A program made the position numbers and the translations under genes. DNA of 55,857 bases from Pseudobutyrivibrio sp. (GTDB taxonomy: Bacteria; Bacillota; Clostridia; Lachnospirales; Lachnospiraceae), in contig NZ_SVEV01000025.1 in NCBI RefSeq assembly GCF_015057185.1, positions 1 through 55,857 on the forward strand, in the 5' to 3' direction. Below are positions 9,539 through 33,702 of this stretch, in pieces. The notes below the pieces were generated by a model. That model was not told where the DNA came from and searched no databases. It saw only the letters and a program-made list of their open reading frames with translations. Position 1 is the first letter of the stretch, and each line of letters opens with the position of its first letter.

Positions 9539-9566
9539 GTTGTGTACTCCTATAGGTTTTTTCTCG

Positions 9567-9647
9567 CCTGTTACGCAAACAATCCATAGTATTACTCCGC
9601 TCAACACACGTTTCGCTTGAGTAATCTATGAGATTGTTTACTACAGG
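9567..9647 (-). repeat. Structured intergenic element, copy 1 (divergent)
   Basis: Minus-strand fold: CCUGU/ACAGG base stem; 1x3 internal loop (A against GUA); GUA/UGC; CAAUC/GAUUG; bulged U; CAUAG/CUAUG; bulged A; AUUACUC/GAGUAAU; GC/GC; tandem GA/GA; AAC/GUU; loop GUGU. The same plan with different bases occurs at 20874-20956 and 33573-33655. It ends 15 bases before the tex ribosome site, in the same sense as tex. Confidence 0.85.
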
Positions 9648-9664
9648 CTATTTTTACTTTTCAA

Positions 9665-19714: not shown

Positions 19715-20852
19715 TTATTCTGTTTCCATTGCGCCTCTATCAGGGCAGCCTAAAGAGAGCCATTTTAAATACGCATTCATGAATGGTGTAAGCTTACCAT
19801 CTAGCACTGCATCTGCATTTCCAGACTCTTCACCTGTTCTAAGATCCTTGACCATGGTATATGGTTGAAGGACATAGGAACGAATTTGATTACCCCAGCC
19901 AATGTCAGAAACCTCGCCTCGGATACCACTAGCCTTGGCAGCATTTTCCTCTTGCTTTAAAAGCAATAACTTGGTTTTCAACATCTGCATTGCCTTGTCT
20001 TTATTTTGGAATTGGCTTCGTTCATTTTGGCAGGTAACTACTATACCAGTAGGAAAATGGGTAATTCTAATTGCCGAACTCGTTTTGTTGATATGCTGTC
20101 CACCTGCGCCTGAAGAACGATATGTATCAATTCGAATATCTTCATCACGAATCTCAACATCAACGTCTTCTTCAATATCAGGCATTACATCACAGCTGGC
20201 AAAAGAAGTCTGTCGTTTGCCCTGGGCATTAAATGGAGAAATTCGAACCAGTCTATGGATTCCTTTCTCGGATTTAAGATATCCATACGCATTTTCTCCA
20301 TTAACCTGGAAGGTAACAGATTTAATACCTGCCTCGTCACCCTCTTGATAGTCCAGCTCATCCACAGAAAAGCCTGCATCGCCAGCCCAACGGGTATACA
20401 TTCTGTATAGCATTTGTACCCAGTCACAAGCCTCTACACCACCAGCACCTGAGTGTAAGGTGACAATAGCGTTATCACTATCATATTCTCCAGATAACAA
20501 TGTTTTCATTCTTAGACTTTCAAGTGAAGCTTCGAATTCTTCTATAAGGACAGCAACCGTATCGACGATTTCCTGATCCTCTTCTTCGTTTCCAAGCTCT
20601 ATGTAGTCTTCAATTTCTTTATATAAATCATCAAGTTTATCTATGACAGCTACGTCGTCCTTCATTGATTTTAGCTCTTTCATCTTTGCAGTGGACGCGT
20701 TAGCATCTGTCCAAAAATCAGGAGCCTCCATCTCTCGCTCTAGCTCTTCAATTCGAGCCTTTTTAGCTGCGACGTCAAAGTGAATCCCTCACTTCCGTCA
20801 TAGAATTTTTTTGCGACGTTAGTCGCACCTTGAACTGATCTAGTTCTATCAC
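19715..20852 (-). CDS. prfB: Peptide chain release factor 2, with programmed +1 frameshift
   Basis: Read from GTG at 20852 (GGTGGTG upstream), 25 codons end in CTT TGA C at 20774-20780; a +1 slip over the UGA continues as DVAAKKARIEELERE into the main frame from 20731, giving 378 aa. The AGGGA just before CTT acts as the internal Shine-Dalgarno-like stimulator. The protein has the RF2 tripeptide SPF (RISPFNAQGKR) for stop-codon reading and the catalytic GGQ (SSGAGGQHINKT). RF2 releases peptides at UGA and UAA; low RF2 favours the frameshift, an autoregulatory loop. A structured element lies 9 bases before its ribosome site. Confidence 0.96.
20774..20780 (-). promoter_or_regulatory. RF2 +1 frameshift site
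   Basis: Minus-strand CTTTGAC with AGGGA six bases upstream. The zero-frame UGA is at 20775-20777. Classical prfB recoding signal. Confidence 0.96.
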
Positions 20853-20873
20853 GAAATCACCACCTTTGTCTCG

Positions 20874-20956
20874 CCTGTTACACTCTCAAGCCTGAGTGCA
20901 GCTTTACTCGACTAACATGTCTCGCGCAGCAGCACTCAGAGCTTGATAGTTACAGG
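20874..20956 (-). repeat. Structured intergenic element, copy 2
   Basis: Minus-strand fold: CCUGU/ACAGG; 1x3 loop (A against GUA); ACU/AGU; CAAGC/GCUUG; bulged U; CUGAG/CUCAG plus UGC/GCA; GCU/AGC; tandem GA/GA; GAC/GUC; loop AUGUUA. Its apical part is identical to copy 3 while helices differ by paired changes. It lies between ctp and prfB, sense with prfB, ending 9 bases before the prfB ribosome site. Confidence 0.88.
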
Positions 20957-21007
20957 CTATTTATACTCTACCTAATTATTTACAGTTGCCCGCCTACAAA
21001 ATAGCAT

Positions 21008-22243
21008 TTATTCCCCCAGTACTTCCAACGCTTTTTGTAGCTGATTATCATATTCTATGCTATAGGCCTCATTCTCTCCACCAAGGAACTCATATTCAAG
21101 GACTATGTCAGGAGTAATACCTTTGCCATGTATGCATTCTCCACTTGGTGTGTAATATCTAGAGGTTGTAATTTTTACTGCTGTTCCATCCCCCAAATCT
21201 ATTGTAGACTGGACAATTCCTTTACCATAGGTTTGAGTTCCTATAATTGTACCATACTCAAAGTCCCTAATAGCACCTGTAAATATTTCAGCTGCCGATG
21301 CTGTATTTCCATTGACCAAAACTGCCATTGGAATATCTTTGTAGTTATCTGCATCCGAAGAATATTCAACCTTATAATCATTTCTATCCATTGTGTAAAC
21401 CACAGTACCCTCTGGAAGAAGATAATCTAAAATTTTTACAACTGAATCAACAAGTCCGCCACCATTATTTCTCATATCAAAAACGACAGCAGTCATTCCC
21501 TGAGATTCCAAATCCTCATAGGCTTCAACAAAATCATCATACGTACTCTCTGTAAATTGAGATACTGCAATATAGCCTATATTATTCTCTAACATCTTTG
21601 ATTCGACTGTAGGAGTAGCAATAGTTTCTCTCTCGCATGTAATTGTCATTTCCTCGCCATCACGAGAAATAACAAGGGCAACAGATGTGCCTTCCTCTCC
21701 ACGAATATGTTGAACAAATTCATCCAAATCCATATCCACAGCTAGGTATTCATCTGCTGAAACAATACTGTCACCAGCCTGCAAGCCGGCTTTTTCTGCT
21801 GGTGTGTCACTGTATACCTTTGTTATATTAACCTCACCAGTTTCTATATTTTTTTGAAGAAGAGCTCCAATTCCAGCATAGTTGCCGGACAAGGTAGACA
21901 TTAATTCGTCGTATTCATCTTCTGTATAATACTCTGAGTATGGATCATCTAAGCTTTCAAATAAGCCCTCATACAATCCATTCTGTAAAGTTTCATCATC
22001 AACATCTATATAATAGTAGTCTTTAATCAATTGGATTAATGAGCTTAGCTTTGCGTTCTCGCCAACTGTTGATGATGTAACCGCTGACTTTTTGTTAACT
22101 GTTCCAACTGCAAATAATATACCTAAGGTTATAGCTGCACCTAATGCTATTCCCAAAACAGCAGCTAGAAATATAGGCCACTTTTTTGTACTCTTCTTTT
22201 CTACAGTCTCTTCTATTGAGACCTCCTCAATATCCTCACACAT
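21008..22243 (-). CDS. ctpA: S41 family C-terminal processing peptidase with PDZ domain
   Basis: 411 aa from the ATG at 22243, which is preceded by GGAAAGG; an ATG 18 bases earlier has no site. One N-terminal membrane anchor (WPIFLAAVLGIALGAAITLGI start), a PDZ domain (SDTPAEKAGLQAGDSIVSAD) and the S41 core with catalytic Ser in NGNTASAAE and Lys in TYGKGIVQ. These proteases cut extracytoplasmic proteins, often wall hydrolases or their regulators. It follows ftsX behind a terminator-like hairpin, which fits a role near the division machinery. Confidence 0.93.
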   Translation of the reverse strand: MCEDIEEVSIEETVEKKSTKKWPIFLAAVLGIALGAAITLGILFAVGTVNKKSAVTSSTVGENAKLSSLIQLIKDYYYIDVDDETLQNGLYEGLFESLDDPYSEYYTEDEYDELMSTLSGNYAGIGALLQKNIETGEVNITKVYSDTPAEKAGLQAGDSIVSADEYLAVDMDLDEFVQHIRGEEGTSVALVISRDGEEMTITCERETIATPTVESKMLENNIGYIAVSQFTESTYDDFVEAYEDLESQGMTAVVFDMRNNGGGLVDSVVKILDYLLPEGTVVYTMDRNDYKVEYSSDADNYKDIPMAVLVNGNTASAAEIFTGAIRDFEYGTIIGTQTYGKGIVQSTIDLGDGTAVKITTSRYYTPSGECIHGKGITPDIVLEYEFLGGENEAYSIEYDNQLQKALEVLGE

Positions 22244-22283
22244 TTTTATACGCCTTTCCATTTAAGTAAAAATCCTTATATAC

Positions 22284-22312
22284 AAAAGTGCCTCAGCAAT
22301 CGCCAAGGCACT
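22284..22312 (-). terminator. Terminator-like hairpin after ftsX
   Basis: Stem GTGCCT/AGGCAC (22288-22293, 22306-22311) with a GC/GC inner pair, then minus-strand TTTT. Short T run, so read-through into ctp is possible. Confidence 0.65.
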
Positions 22313-22331
22313 CCCCTATTATTTATAATAG

Positions 22332-23240
22332 CTAAACTCTCAAATGCTTATGCAAAGTAAATCTCGAGCCAACCCAACCTATTCCAACGCCAAGCACTAA
22401 TGACACTGGTACAAGGGTTTTAAATATAGTTTCTACTGGTATAAAAGATACCATATCACTCAAGAAATTGAACTCACTCGCTGCATAAGAAATTACTTTC
22501 TCATAAATAAAGAATAGAAGAACTAGTGGAATAATCGAGCCAATCAAGCCGATAAAAATACCCTCAACAACGAATGGCTGTCTAACGAAGGCATCCTTAG
22601 CTCCAATTAATTTCATAATAGCAATTTCTTCTTTTCGTACGGAAATACCTACCATAACTGTATTACTAATCAAGAATACAGAAACGAATAGAAGAATTGT
22701 AACAATCGCCATTGATATTATTGTGATGGCTCTGTTAATATCTGTAAAAGTTTTGGCAGCAACCTCTGATTTATTTACCTGTCGAACGCCATCTAGACTC
22801 TCAAGATATGAAACCAAAGTAGACTGCATCGAAACATCGCTCAAATAGATTTCATAGTTAGCTGATTCTGCAAGAGGATTATCATCTGCAAAACTATCAG
22901 CAGCATCTTCGTGTCCTGCGAAGTAAATGCTCTTATATTCTTCCCAAGCATCTTCAGCAGAAACGAACTCATATTTTGAAACCTCTGGGCGCTTTGCTAT
23001 TTCATTACCAATCTCATCTATACGATTCTGAGTAATTCCTTTATCAAAGAAACAAGTAACAGCTACGCCTTCTTCTGCTTCTTTAAGCATTGCCTGGAAA
23101 TTAGTTCCTAATGAGTAAAAAATACCGAATAAGAATATGCATGCAGACATAGTTGCTATAGACGCCAACGAAAAGAGTTTATTTCTCCATACGTTTTTAA
23201 TACCCTGTCCAATGTTGTAAATATGGGTACTAATCTTCAT
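22332..23240 (-). CDS. ftsX: Cell division membrane protein FtsX
   Basis: 302 aa from ATG at 23240, which has GGAGGTG six bases upstream. Typical FtsX plan: one N-terminal membrane segment (LFSLASIATMSACIFLFGIF), a large extracellular domain (about residues 45-160) and three C-terminal segments. FtsX with FtsE forms an ABC-like complex that signals to peptidoglycan hydrolases. The start lies within the end of ftsE. Confidence 0.95.
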   Translation of the reverse strand: MKISTHIYNIGQGIKNVWRNKLFSLASIATMSACIFLFGIFYSLGTNFQAMLKEAEEGVAVTCFFDKGITQNRIDEIGNEIAKRPEVSKYEFVSAEDAWEEYKSIYFAGHEDAADSFADDNPLAESANYEIYLSDVSMQSTLVSYLESLDGVRQVNKSEVAAKTFTDINRAITIISMAIVTILLFVSVFLISNTVMVGISVRKEEIAIMKLIGAKDAFVRQPFVVEGIFIGLIGSIIPLVLLFFIYEKVISYAASEFNFLSDMVSFIPVETIFKTLVPVSLVLGVGIGWVGSRFTLHKHLRV

Positions 23241-23910
23241 AGTCATCACCTCCAACGTCACTTACTACCACGCCTTTTTTAATGGTGATAACTCGCTTAT
23301 TCATTGCTCTAACAATTTCCATATTATGGGTAACAACAACTACTGTAGTTCCTCGCTGATTGATTTCCTCAAGTAGCTTCATAATTTCCCATGTATTATC
23401 ATTGTCCAAATTACCAGTAGGTTCATCTGCCAAAATAATTTTTGGCTCATTAATAAGAGCTCTAGCAATAGCCACTCTCTGCTGTTCTCCACCAGAAAGC
23501 TGACTTGGTCTAGATTTGTATTTAGCTGCAAGTCCTACTAGAGATAAAATAGTAGGAACCTTTTTCTTAATCTCTCTATTTGGAGATTCAACTACCTTCA
23601 TTGCAAAGGCAACATTTTCATAAACATTTCTATCTGGAAGAAGTCTGAAATTCTGGAAGACTACTCCAACATTACGTCTATACTTTGGAATCTTTTTGTG
23701 GGTAACCTTTTTAAGGTCCTGACCATTGATGTATATTTTACCCTTTGTAGGCTCTAATTCTTTAAGTAATAATCTAATAAGTGTAGATTTACCAGAGCCA
23801 CTATCACCAACAACAAAAACAAATTCTCCTGGATCAATATGTATAGTTACATCCTCTAGAGCTGGTTTCCCAACTTCGTACGATTTACTAACATGATCTA
23901 ATCGTATCAA
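23230..23910 (-). CDS. ftsE: Cell division ATP-binding protein FtsE
   Basis: 226 aa ABC ATPase: Walker [10 protein letters not shown], signature LSGGEQQRV, Walker [12 protein letters not shown], and the H-loop in VVVVTHN. Start codon is TTG at 23910 with AGAGGT upstream. It works with FtsX, whose gene overlaps its 3' end by 11 bases. Targets in Firmicutes are NlpC/P60-type endopeptidases; such a gene lies 2 kb upstream. Confidence 0.96.
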
Positions 23911-23951
23911 TATTAATTACCTCTTTCCGCTGAATAACTGTAAAGTAATAT

Positions 23952-25040
23952 TTAGAACTTTTCATCCTCCATATACTTCATGTATTTTACTACCATAAGT
24001 GCAATTTTGAAAGTAATTGCATCTTCAAATACTCTTAAATCTAACCCCGTGCTCTTTTCAAGCTTGTCCAAACGATATACTAAAGTATTTCTGTGGATAT
24101 ATAGCTGTCTAGATGTCTCAGATACATTTAAGCTATTCTCAAAGAATTTGCTGATAGTTGTCAAAGTCTCTTCGTCAAAATCATCTGGTGATTTATTTTC
24201 AAAAATCTCCGAAATAAACATTTTGCAAAGAGGAATTGGCAACTGATAAATAAGACGACCTATTCCAAGAGCAGAGTATGCTATAACACGTTTGTCGTTG
24301 AAGAATATTTTACCAACATCCATAGCCATAGACGCTTCTTTATAAGAACGTGATACTTCTTTTATTTCGCCAACAACAGTTCCGTATGACACTCTGATTT
24401 CTTTTGAATTCTTATCGTGGAATGCATCGATAATAACAGCAGCAATCTTGTCGATATCACTGTAGCTGTCATTCTCGCCTAATTCCTTTACTACAATAAT
24501 ATTATGCTCATCAACAGCAGTAACAAAGTCCTTTGTTTTGCCGCCAAAGACAGAACGAACTCTATCTAATTCGTCACCATCCTTATCTGGGCCAACTTCC
24601 ACAATCATTACTACTCTTCGAGCGTTAATATCTACGTGAAGTTTTTTAGAACGATTATAAATATCCACAAGAAGCAAATTATCTAATAATAAGTTCTTGA
24701 TGAAATTATCTTTATCAAAGCGTTCCTTATAGGCAATCATCAACTCCTGGATTTGGAATGCCGCGATTTTGCCAATTGTAGATGCTTGTTCCCCATCTCC
24801 TTGAGCTAAAATAACGAATTCAAGCTGCTGATCATCAAACACCTTGAAAAAGTGATATCCCAAAGCCACCTGACTATCGGCCTCTGATGCTGCAAAAACT
24901 GATACAGCGTCTGCTAGTTGTGCAGTTTCCGTGAAAGTAGCTGCACAAACAACCCCCTCAGAGTCCATAACAGCCAAATCTATTTTTGTAAGCTGATGCA
25001 GCCCTTCTATTGTATTTTGCATAATCTGATTCGAAATCAT
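23952..25040 (-). CDS. PucR/CdaR-type transcriptional regulator
   Basis: 362 aa. N-terminal sensor-like region (LTKIDLAVMDSEGVVCAA), a GGDEF-like middle part and a C-terminal PucR-type helix-turn-helix (NVSETSRQLYIHRNTLVYRLDKL). CdaR-type members respond to sugar acids, PucR to purine breakdown; the ligand here is unknown. It ends 41 bases before ftsE, so transcription may run on. AGGAGG precedes the ATG. Confidence 0.85.
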   Translation of the reverse strand: MISNQIMQNTIEGLHQLTKIDLAVMDSEGVVCAATFTETAQLADAVSVFAASEADSQVALGYHFFKVFDDQQLEFVILAQGDGEQASTIGKIAAFQIQELMIAYKERFDKDNFIKNLLLDNLLLVDIYNRSKKLHVDINARRVVMIVEVGPDKDGDELDRVRSVFGGKTKDFVTAVDEHNIIVVKELGENDSYSDIDKIAAVIIDAFHDKNSKEIRVSYGTVVGEIKEVSRSYKEASMAMDVGKIFFNDKRVIAYSALGIGRLIYQLPIPLCKMFISEIFENKSPDDFDEETLTTISKFFENSLNVSETSRQLYIHRNTLVYRLDKLEKSTGLDLRVFEDAITFKIALMVVKYMKYMEDEKF

Positions 25041-25356
25041 ATCGAATACCTCCTACTTTTATATGCAATATAAACAATGCAAAAACCCTTTTTTGCATAC
25101 AATTACACATAACCTATGCCCATTCTAATATAAATAACCAAAAAATGAAATAGGAAACTTATATTTATTTATGCAAATTTACAAATTAATATGATGATGG
25201 ACAAATATGAAGCTATTGTGAACTGAAGTATAATTCGAAATATTGTCAGTAAATACACATTTATATCTGAAAATAGTATATCAGCAATAAAGTCAAGTAA
25301 TTCCGACAAATTGCCAACATTTGTAGAATTGAACCAAAACATTCGTTTATGTGAAT

Positions 25357-25459
25357 TGTGGATAACTCCATTTCCTTTTTCACAATTATGGTGGATAAAG
25401 TGGATAACACGTTTACAAGTTCATTTTTACGTGAAGAAAGTGTGAACATCTGTTGATAA
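25357..25459 (+). promoter_or_regulatory. Cluster of DnaA-box-like 9-mers
   Basis: TGTGGATAA at 25357-25365 is an exact DnaA box (complement of TTATCCACA). Three more differ by one base and share its direction: GGTGGATAA (25390-25398), AGTGGATAA (25399-25407, directly abutting) and TGTTGATAA (25451-25459). AT-rich DNA follows. Confidence 0.5.
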
Positions 25460-25681
25460 AATTTTGTATATACACATTAATCTATATTATATGTATTTTT
25501 AACTTTTTATTTTTTTGTGCACTTTTTAAGATTAAAGTAAAAGAATTTAAATTCTATTATCTGACAATTGAAGATAAAATACATTCAATATTATATAAAT
25601 CACACGTGTATCCAGATGTGGCTTTTCTATAATTCAATAAAACTTCTACTACATCCTTTAATAATAAGAATTCTATAAATC

Positions 25682-25710
25682 AAAAATAGGGCATCTGAAG
25701 ATGCCCTATT
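25682..25710 (-). terminator. Terminator of the NlpC/P60 gene
   Basis: 11-bp stem AATAGGGCATC/GATGCCCTATT (25685-25695, 25700-25710), loop TTCA on the minus strand, then a T run. Confidence 0.92.
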
Positions 25711-25725
25711 AATTATTAATTTGAA

Positions 25726-26937
25726 TTAGAATATTCTTCTGATTGCTAAGATATTCTTGTAGTTTACATTTGAGTATGTAATACCTGTTCTGTATGTAGA
25801 TGCATGAAGGAGCTGTCCATTACCAGCATAAATACCAACATGACCTGAATAACATACGATATCACCTGGCTGCATCTCATCATATGATACACCATAACCA
25901 ACGCTACGAAGTGCTGATGATGAATGTGGAAGGCTTACACCAAATGCTGAGTAAACACTCATAACAAAACCTGAACAGTCAGTACCATTTGTAAGTGATG
26001 TACCACCATATACATATGGATTACCAACGAACTGTGAACCATAGGCTACTACTGAACTTCCTGATGATCCAGATGGTGCTGCATAGGTTGTTCCAGAAGA
26101 AGAAGATGATGATGAGTTAGAAACTGCTGCTGCAGCCTGAGTAGCTCTCTGAGCTGCTGCCTGTGCTTCTTCTTTCTCTCTTTCTTCTTTTGCTAAACGA
26201 GCAATTTCTGCATTCTTAGATTCAGCAACTGTAAAGTCTGTTGAAAGCTCTATATAATCTGTTGAGATATAACCTTCACCAGCATTACATGTAACCTTTA
26301 CCCAGCCTGTATCTACCATTGATTCATCGATAACTGTTAAATCGTCTCCTTCTGGAAGAAGATCAATTACGTCTGAATCTGTAGTAGCTTCCTCTCTAAC
26401 GTAAAGAGTAGTAGTTTTAACAATAGCAAGTCGTCTAGATACTGACTTTGCAAGTTCTTCATCATTCTGAACTACATACTCACTTTTAACATATCCTGTA
26501 ACATCTCCAGATGTTATTTTGAGCCACTGTCCATCGTCTGTATCTACAGTCTCAGAAACTGTTGCAGCTGAATTGTTATATAATTTACCAACATATTCGC
26601 TATCTGCTGAAGCTGACTCTCTAATATAAACGTAATTATCTACCTGAGCGATAGCAATATCAGCATATGGATTGTCTGAAGAAGATACTGTACTAGCATC
26701 ATTATCAGCTAACTGTGTCTCTGCTGAAATAGCAGTAGCATTAGCAAGCATATCGTTAACTGAAAGCTGTGCTCCCGCATATGCGGAATACTCTGTCTCC
26801 TCTAAAACTCCAGTCGTACTAGAGATAGAGCTGACACCAGAAGTAGTACTAGCAGCATCTGAGCAAAGTGAAACGCTCGATAATAAAACACATGCTGCAA
26901 GGGAGTAGCTAACAGTCTTTGTCAATTTATAATTCAT
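25726..26937 (-). CDS. Secreted NlpC/P60 peptidoglycan hydrolase with SH3 domains
   Basis: 403 aa. Signal peptide (KTVSYSLAACVLLSSVSLCSDA), two bacterial SH3 domains (about residues 95-165 and 170-235), an Ala/Gln and Ser-rich linker and a C-terminal NlpC/P60 domain with catalytic Cys in TDCSGFV, His in GHVGIYAG and a third polar residue in LLHAST. Such enzymes cut D-Glu-diaminopimelate bonds in the wall and are classical FtsEX clients. A perfect consensus promoter drives it, so it should be made in large amounts. Confidence 0.94.
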   Translation of the reverse strand: MNYKLTKTVSYSLAACVLLSSVSLCSDAASTTSGVSSISSTTGVLEETEYSAYAGAQLSVNDMLANATAISAETQLADNDASTVSSSDNPYADIAIAQVDNYVYIRESASADSEYVGKLYNNSAATVSETVDTDDGQWLKITSGDVTGYVKSEYVVQNDEELAKSVSRRLAIVKTTTLYVREEATTDSDVIDLLPEGDDLTVIDESMVDTGWVKVTCNAGEGYISTDYIELSTDFTVAESKNAEIARLAKEEREKEEAQAAAQRATQAAAAVSNSSSSSSSGTTYAAPSGSSGSSVVAYGSQFVGNPYVYGGTSLTNGTDCSGFVMSVYSAFGVSLPHSSSALRSVGYGVSYDEMQPGDIVCYSGHVGIYAGNGQLLHASTYRTGITYSNVNYKNILAIRRIF

Positions 26938-26980
26938 TTTGTAAAAAAACCTCCGAATTTGTTACAAACTTATTACAACT

Positions 26981-27016
26981 GTTGACATTATATAATCTAA
27001 TGCTAATGATGTCAAC
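26981..27016. promoter_or_regulatory. Inverted repeat spanning the NlpC/P60 promoter
   Basis: GTTGACAT (26981-26988) and ATGTCAAC (27009-27016) are perfect 8-bp arms, one covering the -35 and the other starting beside the -10. It cannot be an RNA hairpin because one arm is upstream of the start site, so a protein operator is the likely reading. Confidence 0.45.
26987..27015 (-). promoter_or_regulatory. Full-consensus promoter of the NlpC/P60 gene
   Basis: TTGACA (27010-27015), 17 bp, TATAAT (26987-26992) on the minus strand, exact sigma-A consensus. Confidence 0.92.
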
Positions 27017-27080
27017 CCCTTGACTTTACATTGTATTTATGGGCTAATCCTCATGTGGAAATTTGTAATAATTTAGTAAA

Positions 27081-27995
27081 CTATTTTTGCTGCAAATACC
27101 TCTCGATTGATGTAATTGCATTTGCGCCATCTGCAGTAGCAGTAATGACCTGTTTTAACTGTTTGGCTCTAACATCTCCTGCGGCATAGATTCCAGGTTT
27201 TGACGTAACACATGTTTCATCTGCAACTAAATATCCTCTCTCGTCAGTTTCTGGCAATCCCTGTATAGAAGAAGTATTTGGTGTTGAACCAACTGCAATA
27301 AACACGCCTTGAACCTTTAGTTCAGTTTGTTCATTTGTATTCTTATTTTTTATAAGAAGATATTCAACTGCATCAGAACCATTAATAGAGTCCACAGTTG
27401 TATCATAGATTATTTCAATTTTGTCAGAGGCTTTGACTTGTTCCTGTAGAAGCGCTGCACCCCTAAATTCATCTCTTCTATGAATAAGATAGACTTTCTT
27501 GCAAAATCTAGCCAAATAAATAGCATCCTCTAGTGCTACGTCTCCGCCACCTACAACTGCAACTTCTTTATCTTTAAAGAAAGCGCCATCACATGTAGCA
27601 CAATATGAAACGCCAACACCTGAAAATTCTTCTTCACCAGGGCAACCAAGCTTTGTATTTGATGCTCCTGTTGCTATGATGACAGTTTTGCTGTAGAAAT
27701 TACCTTTTTTAGTGACAAGCTCTTTATTCCCATCAACCTCATTGATTGAAGTAACTCGTCCTCTAGCAAATTCAACTCCAAGCTTTTCACAATGGTCACG
27801 CATTGCCTGGGCTAGCTCTGTTCCAGAAATGCCAGGCATTCCAGGATAGTTGTCTATTTCATATGTATTAAGAATTTGTCCGCCGCTGATTGAACTAGTA
27901 TCTAAAATCAGAATATCAAGTCCTGCTCTCTTGCCATATATTCCGGCTGCTAAACCTGCTGGACCTGCGCCAATTACGATTACATCATAAATCAT
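27081..27995 (-). CDS. trxB: Thioredoxin reductase
   Basis: 304 aa. FAD site VIGAGPAGLAAGIYGKRAGL, redox-active CATC in SYCATCDGAFF, NADPH site VVGGGDVALEDAIYLA and C-terminal GIYAAGDVRAKQLKQ. It reduces thioredoxin in the cytosol. It follows ridA by 18 bases and has GGAG before ATG, so it is the last gene of the thioesterase-cvfB-ridA-trxB unit. Confidence 0.96.
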   Translation of the reverse strand: MIYDVIVIGAGPAGLAAGIYGKRAGLDILILDTSSISGGQILNTYEIDNYPGMPGISGTELAQAMRDHCEKLGVEFARGRVTSINEVDGNKELVTKKGNFYSKTVIIATGASNTKLGCPGEEEFSGVGVSYCATCDGAFFKDKEVAVVGGGDVALEDAIYLARFCKKVYLIHRRDEFRGAALLQEQVKASDKIEIIYDTTVDSINGSDAVEYLLIKNKNTNEQTELKVQGVFIAVGSTPNTSSIQGLPETDERGYLVADETCVTSKPGIYAAGDVRAKQLKQVITATADGANAITSIERYLQQK

Positions 27996-28013
27996 AACAA
28001 ATCTCCGCTGTAA

Positions 28014-28388
28014 TTATTTTGTAGCAATAGCTTCTGCTTCTAATAATACATCCTTTGGGATTCTAGCCACTTCTATACATGAACGAGCAGGAAATGGCTC
28101 AGGAAAATATTTTGCATACACTTCATTAATCGCTGCAAAATCATCCATATTTTTGATGAATACTGTTGTCTTAACAACATTCTTCATAGATGTGCCTGCT
28201 GCATCCAAAAGTGCAGACATGCTCTTGAATACTCTGTCAGCCTGAGCTGCTGCTCCTTGAGGAATCTCACCAGTAGCAGGATCAACAGGAATAATACCTG
28301 ATGTATATACCATACCATTAACTTCGATAGCCTGTGAGTAAGGTCCAATAGCTGCTGGTGCCTTGTCTGTTGCAATTACATTTTTCAT
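28014..28388 (-). CDS. ridA: RidA family enamine/imine deaminase
   Basis: 124 aa, usual length. IGPYSQAIEVNGMVYTSG at the start and PARSCIEVARIPKD with the substrate-binding Arg near the C-terminus. RidA hydrolyses reactive 2-aminoacrylate and related enamines from PLP enzymes. GGAGGACAATGTA region gives a good ribosome site. Confidence 0.96.
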   Translation of the reverse strand: MKNVIATDKAPAAIGPYSQAIEVNGMVYTSGIIPVDPATGEIPQGAAAQADRVFKSMSALLDAAGTSMKNVVKTTVFIKNMDDFAAINEVYAKYFPEPFPARSCIEVARIPKDVLLEAEAIATK

Positions 28389-28425
28389 TACATTGTCCTC
28401 CTTGTTAAATCCCTAATATTGTGAA

Positions 28426-29256
28426 CTACAAATCAATTCTTCGAATTTTACCATTCTCTAAAGAGATTTTACGTTCTTTATAAAGACGTCCAACTGCACG
28501 CTTGAAAGCGGCCTTTGAAAGTCCTGTCTCCCTTTTAATAACCTCAGGTGAAGCCTTCTCTGTGAATGGTAGAACTCCCGCATAACTATCTATCAATTCA
28601 AGAAGTGCCTGAGCATCCTCGTCCATTTGGACGTAAGCTTTGTCACGAATTGTAACGTCACATTTTCCATCTTCTTTTATACCTGTGACACGAACCATTA
28701 GGATATCACCTATTCTAAACTTCGAAACATCCTCGTGTCTAGGAATCATAGCAGAATATTTATCTTCTAATGCAACAAATGTGCCAAAGTCATGTCCGAA
28801 TTCATATATTCTCGCTTCAACTTCATCTCCAACCTGATATGGCGGCTTCTTTGAAAGCAAATCATATATGCCCTTCATACTAGCACAAAGACGCTGACTT
28901 TTATCAATATATACTCTAACAATAATCTCATCACCCTCTGATGGCTGACGAGTCATTTCCTTAAATGGTAAGAATAAATCCTTTTCAAGTCCCCAATCAA
29001 GGAATGCTCCAACTTTGTTAACCTGGCTTACAGTCAGCACGCCAAACTGTCCCAATGTAAGCTTTGGTGTATTGGTAGTGGCAATCATTCTGTCCTTTGA
29101 GTCCTTATATAAAAAGACTGATATCTCATCACCAATATGATATTCTTCTGGTACCTGTTTCTTAGGAAGTAATACTCTCTCATTTCCATCTGAAAGATAT
29201 ACTCCGAACTCTACCTTCTTTTCTATTTTAAGCTTTTGAATCTCGCCTAATTTCAT
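28426..29256 (-). CDS. CvfB-like S1 RNA-binding protein
   Basis: 276 aa with successive S1-type beta-barrel domains (VNKVGAFLDWGLEKDLFLPF; FGHDFGTFVALED) and a C-terminal winged helix (VIKRETGLSKAAFKRAVGRLYKERKI). This is the CvfB/YitL plan, implicated in RNA binding and virulence gene control in Staphylococcus; here the role is unknown. ATG overlaps the thioesterase stop as TAATG. Confidence 0.88.
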   Translation of the reverse strand: MKLGEIQKLKIEKKVEFGVYLSDGNERVLLPKKQVPEEYHIGDEISVFLYKDSKDRMIATTNTPKLTLGQFGVLTVSQVNKVGAFLDWGLEKDLFLPFKEMTRQPSEGDEIIVRVYIDKSQRLCASMKGIYDLLSKKPPYQVGDEVEARIYEFGHDFGTFVALEDKYSAMIPRHEDVSKFRIGDILMVRVTGIKEDGKCDVTIRDKAYVQMDEDAQALLELIDSYAGVLPFTEKASPEVIKRETGLSKAAFKRAVGRLYKERKISLENGKIRRIDL

Positions 29257-29954
29257 TATTTGTACTCCACAATCGTATAAACTTCGTCGTCCTTTTTAAG
29301 AACAACTTGATAACCTGTTTCTAATTCTACCAAATATACATCTAATTCATCAAATAGCAATGCTGCCTTTTTATAATTAACCGTAATTTGAAAAAAATTT
29401 TCTTTTGGTAAATACCTTCTAGTCACATCTATATAGAATGAATTATTCATGTGCCCATTAGTATCTATGTGATTTTCATTAACAACAAATCTGCCTACTT
29501 TTTCACCTTCTGCTTTATATTGAAGCTTGCTTCTCTCAAAATCAAACTTTGGCATATCAGGATCCAAAGGATAGGCCGCTATCATTTTGTCATCAATTCT
29601 AGCTGGTCTAAGATGTTCTAAATCCATCAATACCCAAAGAGAATCTGCATATACAAGTACCTCATCTTCTTCGGAACAAATGGTGTACACACGTCTTGCC
29701 ATCATCCCTCTCACCTGATAAGGGTATGTTGTTATTTTGATACGCTCCATGTATTTAGGAAGTCTGTTAATGTGAATTTCGTAAGTAGTAACAAACCATC
29801 CTCTACTACGTGGTGCTAAATAATGAACACCAACTCCTACATCATCAGAATGGAAACAGCTACAATCCTGCATATAATTTACAAGTGCATAGTATGTAAG
29901 ATTAAGATTTGAATCCACCTCACTATAACTAACTCGATCACTATACTGATACAT
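29256..29954 (-). CDS. Acyl-ACP thioesterase
   Basis: 232 aa with two hotdog folds typical of bacterial FatA/B-like enzymes. The motif DTNGHMNNSFYIDV carries the conserved Asn/His of the second hotdog. The enzyme releases free fatty acids from acyl carrier protein. AAGGAG precedes the ATG. It leads the unit with cvfB, ridA and trxB. Confidence 0.9.
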   Translation of the reverse strand: MYQYSDRVSYSEVDSNLNLTYYALVNYMQDCSCFHSDDVGVGVHYLAPRSRGWFVTTYEIHINRLPKYMERIKITTYPYQVRGMMARRVYTICSEEDEVLVYADSLWVLMDLEHLRPARIDDKMIAAYPLDPDMPKFDFERSKLQYKAEGEKVGRFVVNENHIDTNGHMNNSFYIDVTRRYLPKENFFQITVNYKKAALLFDELDVYLVELETGYQVVLKKDDEVYTIVEYK

Positions 29955-29984
29955 GACTTCTCCTTAAAGCAAATCTGTTTTTGT

Positions 29985-30016
29985 AAAAAAAAAGACCTAA
30001 GCGCTATGCTTAGGTC
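29985..30016 (-). terminator. Terminator of tRNA-Gln
   Basis: Stem GACCTAAGC/GCTTAGGTC (29994-30002, 30008-30016) and nine minus-strand T. Confidence 0.94.
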
Positions 30017-30021
30017 CTTAG

Positions 30022-30093
30022 CTGGCCCACAAGGATTCGAACCTTGAAATGACGGAGTCAGAGTCCGTTGCCTTACCATTTGGCGATGGGCCA
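30022..30093 (-). tRNA. tRNA-Gln (anticodon CUG)
   Basis: 72 nt. Acceptor TGGCCCA/TGGGCCA with discriminator G, D-arm TCGCCAAATGGTAAGGCA, anticodon loop CTCTGAC (CUG), T-loop GGTTCGAATCC. The 3' CCA is not encoded (GCT follows). Confidence 0.95.
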
Positions 30094-30140
30094 ATACGTT
30101 GAGCTCTTTGCTTTGTTGCTTTCCCGCGTCAACGAATGCT

Positions 30141-30169
30141 ATTATAAAGCATAGATTTTAGAATAGCAA
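30141..30169 (-). promoter_or_regulatory. Promoter of tRNA-Gln
   Basis: Minus-strand TTGCTA (30164-30169), 17 bp, TATAAT (30141-30146). The CGCGGGAAAG block after it matches the outer rRNA promoter. Confidence 0.85.
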
Positions 30170-30188
30170 GTACTTTTTTCAACTTTTT

Positions 30189-30842
30189 TTAAAATTTTAA
30201 AAGTTGGCCTTCTAAAATGTCGTATTTAATCTCGTCATCCCACGTAATTACGGCATTTCCGGCAGTTTTGTCTGCGATATTTTTTTCAAAAATTTCTATA
30301 CTTTCTGATGGAATAACCGATGAAATAATGACATTTACCCCAAAATCTGTATTCAAAATTGGAAAATTATTTTCTCTGAGAACATATTCTATTTTTCCAT
30401 AGCCATTATAATCTGTGGATACAGTACAACACCTTCCTGTTTTAGGAGCAAGTATTTTTGATTCCTTTAATCCTTCTTGTACTGCTTTTTGATAAGCACG
30501 TACTAATCCACCTGTCCCCAATAGTACTCCGCCAAAATATCTTGTTACCACCACGACACAATTATGGATATTTTCTTTTAATAAAACATCCAGCATAGGT
30601 CTACCAGCAGTTTGAGCTGGCTCCCCATCATCATTGCAGCGGGTAATCTCATTATTTTCACCTATAACAAATGCAGAGCAATTATGTCTAGCATCCCAAA
30701 ACTCTTTTTTCTTTCCATTAATAAACGCTACTGCTTCTTCTTCAGTTGTCACTGGTGCAACATGAGCAATAAATCTAGACTTCTTCTCTTCGATTTCTCC
30801 CGTTCCACCCTGATAGACAATTTTATATTCTTTTATATCCAT
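30189..30842 (-). CDS. YigZ/IMPACT family protein
   Basis: 217 aa. N-terminal UPF0029 domain (SRFIAHVAPVTTEEEAVAF, WDARHNCSAFVIG, RCNDDGEPAQTAGRPML, VVVTRYFGGVLLGTGGLVRAY) and a C-terminal DUF1949 ferredoxin-like domain. Eukaryotic IMPACT regulates GCN2; the bacterial role is unknown. Divergent from the PBP gene. Confidence 0.93.
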   Translation of the reverse strand: MDIKEYKIVYQGGTGEIEEKKSRFIAHVAPVTTEEEAVAFINGKKKEFWDARHNCSAFVIGENNEITRCNDDGEPAQTAGRPMLDVLLKENIHNCVVVVTRYFGGVLLGTGGLVRAYQKAVQEGLKESKILAPKTGRCCTVSTDYNGYGKIEYVLRENNFPILNTDFGVNVIISSVIPSESIEIFEKNIADKTAGNAVITWDDEIKYDILEGQLLKF

Positions 30843-30905
30843 ACTTTTTCCTTAATTTCAATTATTAATTGTCACTAATTACAATTGTGTTTTTCACAGT
30901 GAATA

Positions 30906-30935
30906 GTAACATTTTTACTCTGTTTTTGCTATAAT
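30906..30935 (+). promoter_or_regulatory. Promoter of the penicillin-binding protein gene
   Basis: GTAACA (30906-30911), 18 bp, TATAAT (30930-30935). The perfect -10 overlaps an earlier ATG at 30934, which therefore cannot be the start. Confidence 0.65.
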
Positions 30936-30957
30936 GAAGTCTAAATTGGAGGTTATT

Positions 30958-33546
30958 ATGAATTACGGAAAAGAAAATGCAGCTAAGCAATCCGCTAGGC
31001 TTGCAGGACGAGGCAAGAAGAGGCGTAGAAGTGCCGGCCTTGCGATTATCCGAATGTCGCTAATTTGTATCGTCTCTGTTATTGTAGCCACTGGTATATT
31101 TGCTTACCTCTATGCTAAAAATCTTATCGACCAACTTCCCGATGTATCTACTATAGATATTTCCCCTACAGGATATCTGAGCACTGTATATGATTCAGAC
31201 GGGAATGAAATTGAAACACTTGCTTCTACAGGCTCAAATAGAACTTACGTTACATTAGAAGATATTCCTTTAGATTTACAGCATGCTTTTGTTGCAATTG
31301 AGGATGCCCGTTTTTACGAGCACAACGGTATCGATCCACAGGGTATAGTTAGAGCAGCTGTTGATGGTGTCCTAAATGGTTTTCACTTTTCACAAGGTGC
31401 TAGTACACTGACACAGCAGCTATTAAAAAACAACTATTTCACCACATGGACATCTGAGCGTACAAAGCTCGATAGTATCAACCGAAAAATTCAAGAACAG
31501 TACCTTGCAGTTCAACTTGAAAAAATAGTTAGCAAAGATACAATACTTGAGAATTATTTAAATAGTATTAACTTAGGCCAGAACACACTTGGTGTAGAGG
31601 CTGCAGCCGAAAGATATTTTAATAAATCAGTCGGTGACCTAACGCTTTCTGAATGTGCAGTTATTGCAGGTATCACTCAGAACCCAACTAAATACAATCC
31701 TATTACTCACCCAGACGAAAACGCAAAGCGTAGGAAAAAGGTCCTTGGCAATATGCTTGATCAAGGTTATATCAATCAAAGTGAGTATGAGGAAGCACTT
31801 GCCGATGATGTTTATGACAGAATCCAAGTATTAAATACAGAAATCGCCAACTCATCAACCTCTTATTTTGTTGATGCACTTACAGATGAAGTCGTTGCCG
31901 ATTTACAGTCAAAGCTTGGTTACTCTGAGACAGAAGCCTATACATTGCTTTACTCAGGTGGTTTGTCAATTTATTCAACACAGGATACATCAATTCAGCA
32001 AATCGTCGAGGAAGAAATTAACAACACTGACAATTACAATGGCTTAGAAAAGGTTTCCTTCTCTTATCGACTTACCATAACAAAAGCAGATGGTTCAACG
32101 GCTAACTATTCTGACATTACAATGCTTTCTTATTACCAAGCTAGCAACAAAGACTACAATCTTGAATTTGATTCGGAAGAAGATGCCGCTGCTGCAATTG
32201 AAGCTTATAAGGAAATCGTATTAGAAGACGGCGACAAGGTTGAAGGTGAAAGTGTTACATATACATTACAGCCTCAGGCCGCAATGACCGTTATTGATCA
32301 ATCAACTGGACAGGTAGTTGCTATGGTAGGTGGTCGCGGTGATAAAACAGCCGCAAAAACACTTAATCGTGCAACAGGCATTACTCGTCAGCCTGGCTCT
32401 ACATTCAAGGTTATCGCTTGTTATGCCGCAGCTCTTGATGCTGGTGGAATGACATTAGCATCTGTAGAAAACGATATGCCTACCACATACGCAGATGGAA
32501 CAAAGCTTTCAAACTATAATAAAGCGTATTTAGGCTGGACAAACATTCGTACAGCTATCACCAATTCCATTAACGTCGTAACTGTTGAAGTTATGCAGGA
32601 TATTGGAACAAGCCTTGGTTATCAATACGCTCAGGACCTTGGAATTACTACCTTAACTGATACTGATAACAACGCAGCATTAGCCCTTGGTGGTATTACA
32701 GACGGTGTAACAAACCTTGATCTTACAACCGCATATGCAACAATTGCCAATGGCGGTGAATATAATGAACCAGTTTTCTACACAACAGTTGTAGATCATC
32801 AGGGTAATATAATTCTTGATAATAGAGAAAATAGTCCAAAAAGAGTTTTAAAAGAAACAACTGCTTGGCTTTTAACAAGCGCTATGCAGGATGTTATGAC
32901 TGCTGGTACAGGTAAGGTTGCCAACTTTGAGGGAATGGCAGTTGCTGGTAAATCAGGAACAACAACCAAAAATAAGGATACTGTATTTGCAGGATTTACA
33001 CCTTACTACACAGCCGTTATTTGGGGTGGATTTGACGACAATACACCTCAAAGCTATACAACTTACTCTAAAGTTATTTGGAAGGCCGTAATGAGCCGAA
33101 TTCACGAGAATTTGGCCTATAAAGACTTTACCAAGCCGAGTGGAATTGTTACTGCTCAAGTTTGTAAGAAATCTGGAAAGCTTGCCATTGCAGGCGTTTG
33201 TGATTGCGACCCTCGTGGTTCAATGGTTTATACAGAATACTTTGAGGAAGGTACAGAGCCAACAGAATATTGTGATCACCACTATTTAGGTAGTGTTTGT
33301 ACCGCCACTCACATGTTTGCAAATTCTGAATGTCCTTATTACACAGGAGTATTTATAATAGGTGCTGCTGCAGGCTCAGATGATGAAGCTTATGGTGTCG
33401 ATGCAGCCACATTCGGACAATATTGTCCTATCCACGGTGGTTACCAGCTACCTAACTCTGGCTCTGTTGGTGGTGGCACTAGCACTGTTACCGACAGCGG
33501 AGGCAGCGAGGGAACAATCGAGGTAGTTCCTGGTAATAGCGAATAA
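30958..33546 (+). CDS. Class A penicillin-binding protein (PBP1A type)
   Basis: 862 aa from ATG at 30958 (GGAGGT upstream). Basic cytosolic tail, one membrane segment (about residues 28-50), GT51 transglycosylase (catalytic Glu in VAIEDARFYEHNGID; GASTLTQQLLKN) and transpeptidase with the active Ser in RQPGSTFKV, the SxN motif in TNSINVV and KSGTTTK. It polymerises and cross-links peptidoglycan. After the transpeptidase comes a cysteine-rich tail (CKKSG, CDCDPRG, CDHHY, CTATHMF, CPYY, CPIHGG) and a Gly/Ser-rich end. The only plus-strand gene in the window. Confidence 0.95.
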   Translation: MNYGKENAAKQSARLAGRGKKRRRSAGLAIIRMSLICIVSVIVATGIFAYLYAKNLIDQLPDVSTIDISPTGYLSTVYDSDGNEIETLASTGSNRTYVTLEDIPLDLQHAFVAIEDARFYEHNGIDPQGIVRAAVDGVLNGFHFSQGASTLTQQLLKNNYFTTWTSERTKLDSINRKIQEQYLAVQLEKIVSKDTILENYLNSINLGQNTLGVEAAAERYFNKSVGDLTLSECAVIAGITQNPTKYNPITHPDENAKRRKKVLGNMLDQGYINQSEYEEALADDVYDRIQVLNTEIANSSTSYFVDALTDEVVADLQSKLGYSETEAYTLLYSGGLSIYSTQDTSIQQIVEEEINNTDNYNGLEKVSFSYRLTITKADGSTANYSDITMLSYYQASNKDYNLEFDSEEDAAAAIEAYKEIVLEDGDKVEGESVTYTLQPQAAMTVIDQSTGQVVAMVGGRGDKTAAKTLNRATGITRQPGSTFKVIACYAAALDAGGMTLASVENDMPTTYADGTKLSNYNKAYLGWTNIRTAITNSINVVTVEVMQDIGTSLGYQYAQDLGITTLTDTDNNAALALGGITDGVTNLDLTTAYATIANGGEYNEPVFYTTVVDHQGNIILDNRENSPKRVLKETTAWLLTSAMQDVMTAGTGKVANFEGMAVAGKSGTTTKNKDTVFAGFTPYYTAVIWGGFDDNTPQSYTTYSKVIWKAVMSRIHENLAYKDFTKPSGIVTAQVCKKSGKLAIAGVCDCDPRGSMVYTEYFEEGTEPTEYCDHHYLGSVCTATHMFANSECPYYTGVFIIGAAAGSDDEAYGVDAATFGQYCPIHGGYQLPNSGSVGGGTSTVTDSGGSEGTIEVVPGNSE

Positions 33547-33561
33547 ATTATATATTTACAA

Positions 33562-33666
33562 AAAAGAACCAATTTGTTACGGCTACAAGCCTTAGTGTTA
33601 CTCCACTCGACTAACATGTCTCGTGGAAGTAACCTAAGAGCTTGATGCCTACAAATTGGTTCTTTT
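33562..33666. terminator. Bidirectional terminator enclosing a structured element
   Basis: A 16-bp stem, AAAAGAACCAATTTGT (33562-33577) with ACAAATTGGTTCTTTT (33651-33666), ends in T runs both ways, serving the convergent PBP and glnA genes. Its loop is 73 bases, filled by copy 3 of the structured element. Confidence 0.85.
33573..33655 (-). repeat. Structured intergenic element, copy 3
   Basis: Minus-strand fold: UUUGU/ACAAA; 1x3 loop (A against GUA); GGC/GCC; CAAGC/GCUUG; bulged U; CUUAG/CUAAG; bulged A; GUUAC/GUAAC; bulged U; UCCAC/GUGGA; tandem GA/GA; GAC/GUC; loop AUGUUA. Every helix is fully paired. Confidence 0.9.
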
Positions 33667-33702
33667 TATTTTATACTATTATATTATTCGCTATATCAGG
33701 AA

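What the first reader, a model, noticed from the sequence alone, without database searches (positions are those of the whole stretch)
20874..33655. A covarying ~82-nt structured element in three intergenic copies
Copies at 9567-9647, 20874-20956 and 33573-33655, all in the same sense (minus strand), share one fold while their stems differ. Base stem: CCUGU/ACAGG in two copies, UUUGU/ACAAA in the third. Next helix: GUA/UGC, ACU/AGU, GGC/GCC. Then CAAUC/GAUUG or CAAGC/GCUUG; CAUAG/CUAUG, CUGAG/CUCAG or CUUAG/CUAAG; apical AAC/GUU or GAC/GUC. Conserved unpaired parts: a 1x3 loop (A opposite GUA), a bulged U, and tandem GA/GA below the apical stem. Compensatory changes at five helices in three copies are what a selected structure looks like. 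I cannot match it to a riboswitch or repeat family I know.
Basis: partly seen in the sequence, partly recalled or inferred. Interest (0 to 1): 0.85.

Follow-up and report, generated by a model that had tools for sequence, protein, structure and literature searches.

The report
Genus-specific folding repeat between genes
The three copies belong to a family of about a hundred short, precisely folding sequences scattered between genes in the rumen bacterium Pseudobutyrivibrio, which appears to have spread like a small mobile element and whose fold seems to have been kept afterwards.

Summary
The three elements lie where stated, fold as described, and belong to a family with at least 110 strong copies in this 3.25-Mb genome. 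In a 36-copy alignment 21 of 31 pairs show compensatory change; the covariation score is 0.505 against 0.165 +/- 0.010 when shuffled. The genus is Pseudobutyrivibrio: 27 of 29 genus genomes have copies, and samples of 397 family and 392 order genomes gave no strong match outside it. No Rfam family matched. None of 229 copies in three genomes lies wholly inside a gene called here.

It behaves like a small mobile repeat: present, absent or remnant at orthologous sites, in opposite orientations, and nested in older copies. It takes two forms: a short-footed hairpin before start codons inside gene runs, and the apex of terminator-like stems between convergent genes. It is not a riboswitch (mixed housekeeping genes) and fails two of the GTAG-REP tests outright (size, tag); a Y1 transposase is missing from many copy-rich genomes. 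The mover is unknown and RNA function was not tested. Best filed as a new variant of the known kind 'structured intergenic repeat'.

The parts
9563..9651 (-). Copy 1, leader form, between the ORF ending at 9665 and the start of the Tex-like ORF (7388-9538)
   Evidence: CM R1 73.8 bits, E 2.2e-20; fold z -8.4; foot ATAGCCT/AGGCGAG, GTA at 9644-9642, GTAAC at 9574-9570
20870..20960 (-). Copy 2, leader form, directly upstream of prfB (GTG start at 20852 read)
   Evidence: CM R1 100 bits, E 2.8e-29; fold z -6.4; foot ATAGCCT/AGGCGAG; a copy stands upstream of prfB in 14 of 28 readable genus genomes
33569..33659 (-). Copy 3, terminator form, between convergent genes
   Evidence: CM R1 84.3 bits, E 5.9e-24; fold z -11.3 for 33558-33672
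33653..33667 (-). 5' arm (AAAAAGAACCAATTT) of the terminator-like stem that carries copy 3 as its apex
   Evidence: Sequence; 15 pairs outside GTA/GTAAC counted
33561..33575 (-). 3' arm (AAATTGGTTCTTTTT) of the same stem, running into a T-run
   Evidence: Sequence
33576..33580 (-). Conserved GTAAC (3' side of the 1x3 internal loop); GTAAC is invariant in 36 of 36 aligned copies
33650..33652 (-). Conserved GTA (5' side of the internal loop), 36 of 36 aligned copies
7388..9538 (-). Gene downstream of copy 1: 717-aa protein with a C-terminal S1-type stretch (Tex-like; the name Tex is recalled)
   Evidence: NCBIfam match to 30S ribosomal protein S1 only over residues 637-712, below its cut-off
19715..20852 (-). 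prfB (release factor 2), downstream of copy 2, with the in-frame TGA of the usual programmed frameshift (frameshift recalled)
   Evidence: TIGR00020 493 bits for 19718-20731; sequence
21008..22261 (-). C-terminal processing peptidase (S41), gene upstream of copy 2
   Evidence: TIGR00225 306 bits
30934..33546 (+). PBP1A-family penicillin-binding protein, convergent neighbour of copy 3
   Evidence: TIGR02074 527 bits
33703..35823 (-). 706-aa protein, other convergent neighbour of copy 3 (looks like type III glutamine synthetase by recall; no NCBIfam hit at 1e-20)

Best explanation
The element is one member of a genus-restricted family of structured intergenic repeats of about 85-95 nt (at least 110 copies here). 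The family most likely spread as a small mobile element whose recognised form is a folded single strand, and its copies then came to serve as hairpins in transcripts. Between co-directional genes the sense strand forms a hairpin with a short foot (typically four pairs beyond the invariant G-C and U-A, then an A.G mismatch), mostly without a U-run and usually within about 25 nt of the next start codon, so it would act as an intercistronic or leader structure without terminating transcription. Between convergent genes the same apex mostly sits on a long stem with an A-run before and often a T-run after, so it would act as the upper part of a terminator. SHOWN by sequence: the fold, the covariation, the copy number, the genus limit in the samples taken, the intergenic placement, the two context forms, presence/absence and nesting. 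INFERRED: movement as a folded strand, maintenance for an RNA-level role such as mRNA end or intercistronic protection, and recognition of the invariant loops (A/GUA, bulged U, apical loop) by a protein.
For: Copy number and fold: 110 strong copies; covariation 0.505 vs 0.165. Folded strand: G-T cells outnumber A-C cells 49 to 8 in A2 and 129 to 8 in 103 rows of A3, so the sense strand is the one that folds. Outer pairs of both stems covary while unpaired positions are invariant, so the fold and not a double-stranded terminal repeat is what is kept. Mobility: at prfB, 14 of 28 readable genomes have a copy, 2 a remnant and 12 none (G020 not readable). L115 is filled where L074 is empty, flanks 94-95% identical. 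At the convergent site 6 of 27 loci have copies, one orientation in this genome and the other in five. Nested copies. Two forms: stem of 8 or more pairs in 11 of 15 scored convergent copies vs 2 of 64 scored sense tandem copies, P=1e-8; A-run in 14 of 15 vs 2 of 64, P=1e-12; T-run in 7 of 15 vs 0 of 64, P=2e-6. Sense bias: 68 of 89, 45 of 52 and 36 of 41 tandem-gene copies in three genomes. Maintenance in place: no pair of the 110 copies reaches 95% identity (12 of 5995 pairs reach 90%), median 72%, yet pairing holds; in 8 orthologous pairs at 90-99.99% identity, changes at paired sites were 3 double compensatory, 7 G-U-preserving and 3 breaking.
Against: No enzyme that moves it was found. No target-site duplication was seen in the one clean filled/empty pair, whose ends stay uncertain. 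Gain cannot be told from loss: the G016/G012 pair fits either. 21 of 110 copies here are antisense to both neighbours, which does not suit a sense-RNA role, and 6 of 19 scored antisense copies also have long stems, so the two forms are not a clean split. Two of the three double compensatory changes are the same change seen in two loci (L075, L088). Below 75% identity, orthologous-site pairs (21) show 171 double-kept, 10 G-U, 26 single-broken and 19 double-broken, but many may be replacements. Template-switch correction of palindromes (recalled) could make compensatory changes without selection, though it would also erase the conserved mismatches. The own genome does have one Y1 transposase match over the cut-off (44.5 bits). 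No transcription data were available. Genes and start sites are my own simple ORF calls.
Confidence: 0.6

Rival explanations
1. Purely selfish mobile repeat: copies spread through folded single-stranded DNA at replication forks, as REP/IS200-type elements do (recalled), and have no role in RNA. Sense bias and placement only reflect where insertions are tolerated.
For: Nesting, remnants and turnover. In G011, 61 of 70 copies point with the fork; in contexts where genes do not fix the orientation 15 of 19 do, P=0.019. One Y1 transposase match in the own genome.
Against: The replication signal did not repeat in G009 (4 of 8) and is P=0.052 pooled, 19 of 27. Y1 transposase is found in only 10 of 29 genus genomes and not in copy-rich G011, G012, G004 or G022. 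Diverged copies keep their pairing. The two forms go with gene context.
Confidence: 0.25
2. A true cis-regulatory RNA class (riboswitch or protein-binding leader) that controls a regulon.
For: Position just before start codons in tandem genes; strictly conserved loops.
Against: Downstream genes look unrelated: FabK-like, fabD, fabZ, prfC, smpB, hydG, ilvD, pyrF, purN, isocitrate dehydrogenase and others among the 20 of 54 scanned, one of which had no match. Copies come and go at the same gene between species. 16 of 110 are between convergent genes and 21 antisense.
Confidence: 0.1
3. A MITE of a conventional DDE transposon: the core ends (GCTATCAAGC / GCTCTCAAGC) are terminal inverted repeats and the flanking GTA...GTA is a 3-bp target duplication.
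For: GTA flanks the core on both sides in 36 of 36 copies; the G016/G012 terminators differ by a core between GTA and GTA-AC.
Against: The outermost core pairs vary with compensation, which a double-stranded repeat would not need. Hairpins with a GTAAC loop and no core are rare: 11 places with 6 or more pairs in 1.44 Mb, only the two in G016 with 10 or more, and GTAAC is not among the 15 most hairpin-prone loops of the 64 compared; no empty leader feet in 1.86 Mb. No parent transposon was recognised among paired half-elements in 1.08 Mb.
Confidence: 0.05

Closest known systems
GTAG-tagged REP elements with RAYT transposases
   Same: High-copy, mostly intergenic hairpins, mainly between unidirectional and convergent genes, some species-specific (PMC3733652: abstract, outline and found passages seen)
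   Different: Those are 20-40 bp with an unpaired GTAG at one end; here about 85-95 nt, GTA is inside the helix, and Y1 transposases are missing from many copy-rich genomes. The words 'Firmicutes', 'Butyrivibrio' and 'Clostridi' do not occur in the main text of that paper.
bcr1 of the Bacillus cereus group
   Same: Group-restricted repeat of about 150-170 nt with a conserved structure and mobile-element traits (Bcr1 rows and title of reference 24 in PMC2267715, passages seen)
   Different: No relation by Rfam; I did not compare sequences with bcr1. The two context forms and nesting seen here I cannot match to bcr1 (recall).
Stem-loop sequence families of Cozzuto et al. 2008 (92 families in 40 genomes)
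   Same: Same general kind: repeated, mostly intergenic sequences with a common fold (PMC2267715: abstract, outline and passages seen)
   Different: The passages seen list Clostridium perfringens and C. tetani families; 'Butyrivibrio' does not occur in its main text. Sequences were not compared.
Intrinsic (Rho-independent) terminators
   Same: Most convergent-site copies have long stems and an A-run before, about half a T-run after
   Different: The conserved apex of about 70 nt is not part of a terminator, and no sense tandem copy scored has the T-run.

Membership tests
GTAG REP / RAYT system | 20-40 bp palindromic unit | tested here: not met
   Matches span mostly 88-95 nt
GTAG REP / RAYT system | Unpaired GTAG at one end | tested here: not met
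   G and T of GTA pair with C and A of GTAAC in 36 of 36; the next base also pairs; only the A is unpaired
GTAG REP / RAYT system | Y1 (REP-associated) transposase in the genome | tested here: inconclusive
   PF01797 in 10 of 29 genus genomes, among them the own genome (one match, 44.5 bits, cut-off 23); none in G011, G012, G004 or G022, which have 43 or more copies each. Not a general requirement; an ancestral role is not excluded
Conventional MITE (DDE) | Terminal inverted repeats conserved in sequence | tested here: inconclusive
   CAAGC/GCTTG conserved, but outer pairs covary
Conventional MITE (DDE) | Target-site duplication at clean filled/empty pairs | tested here: inconclusive
   GTA...GTA in G012 vs G016; none visible in L115 vs L074
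Conventional MITE (DDE) | Parent transposon with the same ends | tested here: inconclusive
   Half-element pairing in 1.08 Mb gave 177 pairs, three of them over 2 kb, judged spurious by eye; no transposase unit recognised, no protein search made inside them
Integron attC site | Core-site boxes GTTRRRY / RYYYAAC (recalled) | tested here: not met
   Invariant ends are GTA and GTAAC
Integron attC site | Integron integrase in the genome | not tested
   Not searched
Riboswitch / cis-regulatory RNA class | Leaders of functionally related genes | tested here: not met
   Mixed genes in 20 of 54 scanned
Riboswitch / cis-regulatory RNA class | Known Rfam family | tested here: not met
   Gathering scan of the whole window: only 2 tRNAs. 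Permissive scan of one of the three copies (33480-33750): five matches, none near a gathering score
Intrinsic terminator | Stable stem followed by a T-run | tested here: inconclusive
   T-count rule met by 7 of 15 scored convergent copies and 0 of 64 scored sense tandem copies; no termination assay

The most novel reading that the evidence does not exclude
A hairpin-targeting mobile element of a new kind: recognised as a folded single strand by an unknown enzyme other than a Y1 transposase, it enters or leaves the loops of existing hairpins (intrinsic terminators with a GTAAC loop, and older copies of itself, giving Russian-doll nests), and its host has turned about a hundred copies into two context-specific RNA parts, intercistronic leaders and terminator tops.
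Probability: 0.2. Interest if true: 0.8.

Novelty: new variant of a known kind. Interest (0 to 1): 0.55.

Why it matters
Structured intergenic repeats are common, but it is rarely possible to say whether the fold serves movement or the host. Here one family gives dozens to over a hundred diverged copies per genome, two context-specific forms, empty and nested sites, and a culturable genus, so both questions can be tested directly. If the unknown mover is found, it could be a new enzyme acting on folded strands.

Tried and rejected
Rfam at gathering thresholds and, for one of the three copies, permissive thresholds: nothing. Y1/RAYT as the general mover: not supported, though the own genome has one Y1 match. 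Search for an autonomous parent by pairing 5' and 3' half-elements: found nested copies, no transposase unit recognised. Ready-made GTAAC-loop hairpins as a general target: 11 places with 6 or more stem pairs in 1.44 Mb, only the two in G016 with 10 or more, and no empty leader feet in 1.86 Mb, so this stays a minority reading; three shortened-core copies were found instead (L241, L293, L329). Replication-strand bias: suggestive in G011, not repeated in G009. Relatives outside the genus: one 20.1-bit match, E 0.03, in G072, treated as chance. Viral contigs: one strict pattern, 0 hits. Papers: seven searches showed no description of this repeat in their listings; the library holds open-licence papers only. 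Two papers were seen as outline, abstract and found passages (PMC3733652, PMC2267715); all others as listings.

Rows dropped: of 114 matches, four (E above 1e-5, one of them the reverse strand of a counted copy) were left out of the context counts. For the 36-row alignment, one search kept 38 copies and skipped 5 places (fragments or degenerate); one of the 38 lacked margin in the stretch fetched and one (C42, about 76104) I left out as divergent. Stem and run counts score 64 of 68 sense tandem, 19 of 21 antisense, 15 of 16 convergent and 3 of 3 divergent copies. The script and the first tests used 68 and 16 as run denominators; one search redoes them on scored copies. The G-T/A-C count on A3 uses the first 103 of 108 rows, because the last five are reverse strands of copies already counted.

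Full report
OBSERVATION. The ORF list and protein matches place copy 1 upstream of a gene that looks like Tex (recalled; the only NCBIfam match is to a short S1-type stretch), copy 2 directly upstream of prfB, and copy 3 between a PBP1A-family gene and a 706-aa gene that converge. Rfam gives only two tRNAs in the window; a permissive scan of copy 3 alone gives five matches, none near a gathering score.

FAMILY SIZE AND FOLD. One copy used as a blastn query finds 43 places in the genome. I fetched these, aligned 36 copies and built a covariance model R1. In the own genome R1 gives 114 matches at E<=1, 110 of them at E<=1.8e-10; 150 of 984 candidates were scored, so there may be more. Of 31 modelled pairs, 21 have compensatory changes. 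Against 500 shuffles the covariation score is 0.505 vs 0.165 +/- 0.010, and sliding the partners by 1-3 columns gives at most 0.096. Invariant in 36 of 36 are GTA, GTAAC, the bulged T, and the C and G closing the apex. The tandem GA is at one position in 23 copies and one pair further up in 7; the other 6 have other pairs there. G-T cells outnumber A-C cells 49 to 8, and 129 to 8 in 103 rows from named genomes, so the strand described is the one that folds.

DISTRIBUTION. A pattern scan of named genomes returned 77 stretches: 70 titled Pseudobutyrivibrio and 7 titled Butyrivibrio fibrisolvens 16/4. The latter record has the same length as the contig of G009, which the tool places in the same genus. 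With R1, 27 of 29 genus genomes (own included), 0 of 8 other family genomes and 0 of 24 order genomes have matches; the two negatives, G006 and G020, are incomplete (86 and 83%). In a draw of 397 family genomes only 2 match, both of this genus, 1 of 334 genera. A model R2 from 108 rows of other species (five of these rows are reverse strands of copies) adds one match in G072, 20.1 bits, E 0.03. In 392 order genomes 10 match, all of this genus, 1 of 173 genera. These draws overlap in genomes, and large draws use stricter filters that lose weak matches. One strict pattern finds nothing in viral contigs.

PLACEMENT. By my own ORF calls, none of 110 copies here lies wholly inside a gene (a few overlap a gene end by up to 24 nt); 68 lie between and in the sense of co-directional genes, 21 antisense to both, 16 between convergent and 3 between divergent genes, 2 at contig ends. 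In G011 none of 70 and in G009 none of 49 lies inside a gene. Tandem-gene copies are sense in 68 of 89, 45 of 52 and 36 of 41. Median distance from the 3' end of the match is 20.5 nt to the next start codon in sense tandem copies and 12 nt to the stop codon of the opposite gene in antisense copies. Proteins downstream of 20 of 54 sense copies (those within 60 nt of a start) were scanned: 19 match ordinary housekeeping or metabolic families, some below the curated cut-off (FabK, for example), and one has no match.

TWO FORMS. In scored sense tandem copies the foot has a median of 4 pairs outside GTA/GTAAC, and 2 of 64 have 8 or more; 0 of 64 have a T-run and 2 of 64 an A-run. In scored convergent copies the median is 11, 11 of 15 have 8 or more, 14 of 15 have an A-run before and 7 of 15 a T-run after. 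Antisense copies lie between: median 5, 6 of 19 with 8 or more, 5 with an A-run, 1 with a T-run. In sense copies the foot is usually closed by an A opposite a G: A in 56 of 64 on the 5' side and G in 49 of 64 on the 3' side.

SIGNS OF MOBILITY. At prfB, of 28 genomes whose upstream region could be read, 14 have a full copy, all in the sense of prfB, 2 have remnants (G026, G005) and 12 have none (G020 not readable). The 14 copies are as unlike each other as copies from different places (median identity 0.71 over 91 pairs, random pairs 0.73), except among close relatives (G007/G014/G023, G018/G025, G004/G013, 0.93 to 1.0). In G007, G014, G018 and G025 the site holds extra 5' halves, one whole hairpin, and extra 3' halves; G023 has an extra 5' half only. 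Basal stems match level by level in G007 and, as far as read, in G025. Other nests: L080, and the orthologous L097, L124 and L141. L115 has a copy where L074, with 94-95% identical flanks, has none. At the convergent site of copy 3, 6 of 27 loci have copies: this genome in one orientation, G012 (three tandem copies), G002, G005, G007 and G014 in the other. G016 there has two plain hairpins with the loop GTAAC where G012 has the core between GTA and GTAAC, a precise gain or loss. The Tex site was not compared, because that query failed.

MAINTENANCE. No two of the 110 copies reach 95% identity (12 of 5995 pairs reach 90%; ends trimmed by 6 nt); the median is 72%. Pairing nonetheless holds. Of 47 orthologous-site pairs, 8 at 90-99.99% identity show 3 double compensatory, 7 G-U-preserving and 3 breaking changes; 6 at 75-90% show 26, 4 and 3, with 2 double-broken; 21 at 50-75% show 171, 10 and 26, with 19 double-broken, and many of these last are probably replacements and not descent. 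Two of the first three double changes are one change seen in two loci. Template-switch correction of palindromes is a known non-selective source of such changes (recall), but it would not spare the conserved mismatches.

MOVER. Y1 transposases occur in 10 of 29 genus genomes, the own genome included with one match of 44.5 bits, and not in copy-rich G011, G012, G004 or G022. In G011, GC skew gives clear replichores, and 61 of 70 copies point with the fork, most of them because their genes do. Where genes do not fix the orientation, 15 of 19 point with the fork (P=0.019), but in G009 4 of 8 do (pooled 19 of 27, P=0.052), so this is unresolved.

VERDICT. The element is a new genus-restricted family of structured intergenic repeats, most likely of mobile origin, with a fold that appears to be maintained after insertion. 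What moves it and what it does in RNA remain inference. No description was seen in the listings of seven searches of an open-licence library.

Noticed in passing
G000 C53:10114-10213, C34:64624-64723, C16:3370-3519, C16:232-380; a related one near C47:59.8 kb: Copies with a different apical domain (GAGGAGTATAGCGAAAGCGATCTC-like) on the same foot; the two C16 copies carry a longer insert in it.
   Followed up: partly
G000 C25:68079-68240: A copy whose apex is interrupted by another hairpin (CAAAATTATCCTTGCAAATGCAAGGTAATTTTG and more), perhaps a second small repeat.
   Followed up: no
L246, L260, L265, reversed in L248 and L266: What looks like a second dispersed repeat in the same convergent intergenic region (GGCAGCACCC...TGCCTACGGCAAAGAGGGTGCGCCGTG-like), seen by eye.
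   Followed up: no
G000 C53:4967, 6020, 9057: Copies stand before FabK-like, fabD and fabZ genes in one fatty-acid gene cluster.
   Followed up: partly
L293 about 1328 and L329 about 8456, minus strand; L241 about 1336, minus strand: Copies with the core shortened to 23, 3 or 5 nt that keep the foot and GTA...GTAAC.
   Followed up: no
window 20720-20852, minus strand: prfB start and the in-frame TGA of the usual release-factor-2 frameshift (recalled) lie directly after copy 2.
   Followed up: no
L132 5041-5265, L091 2529-2748, L245 1113-1469: Whole elements in tandem about 130 nt apart, in L245 near-identical by eye.
   Followed up: no
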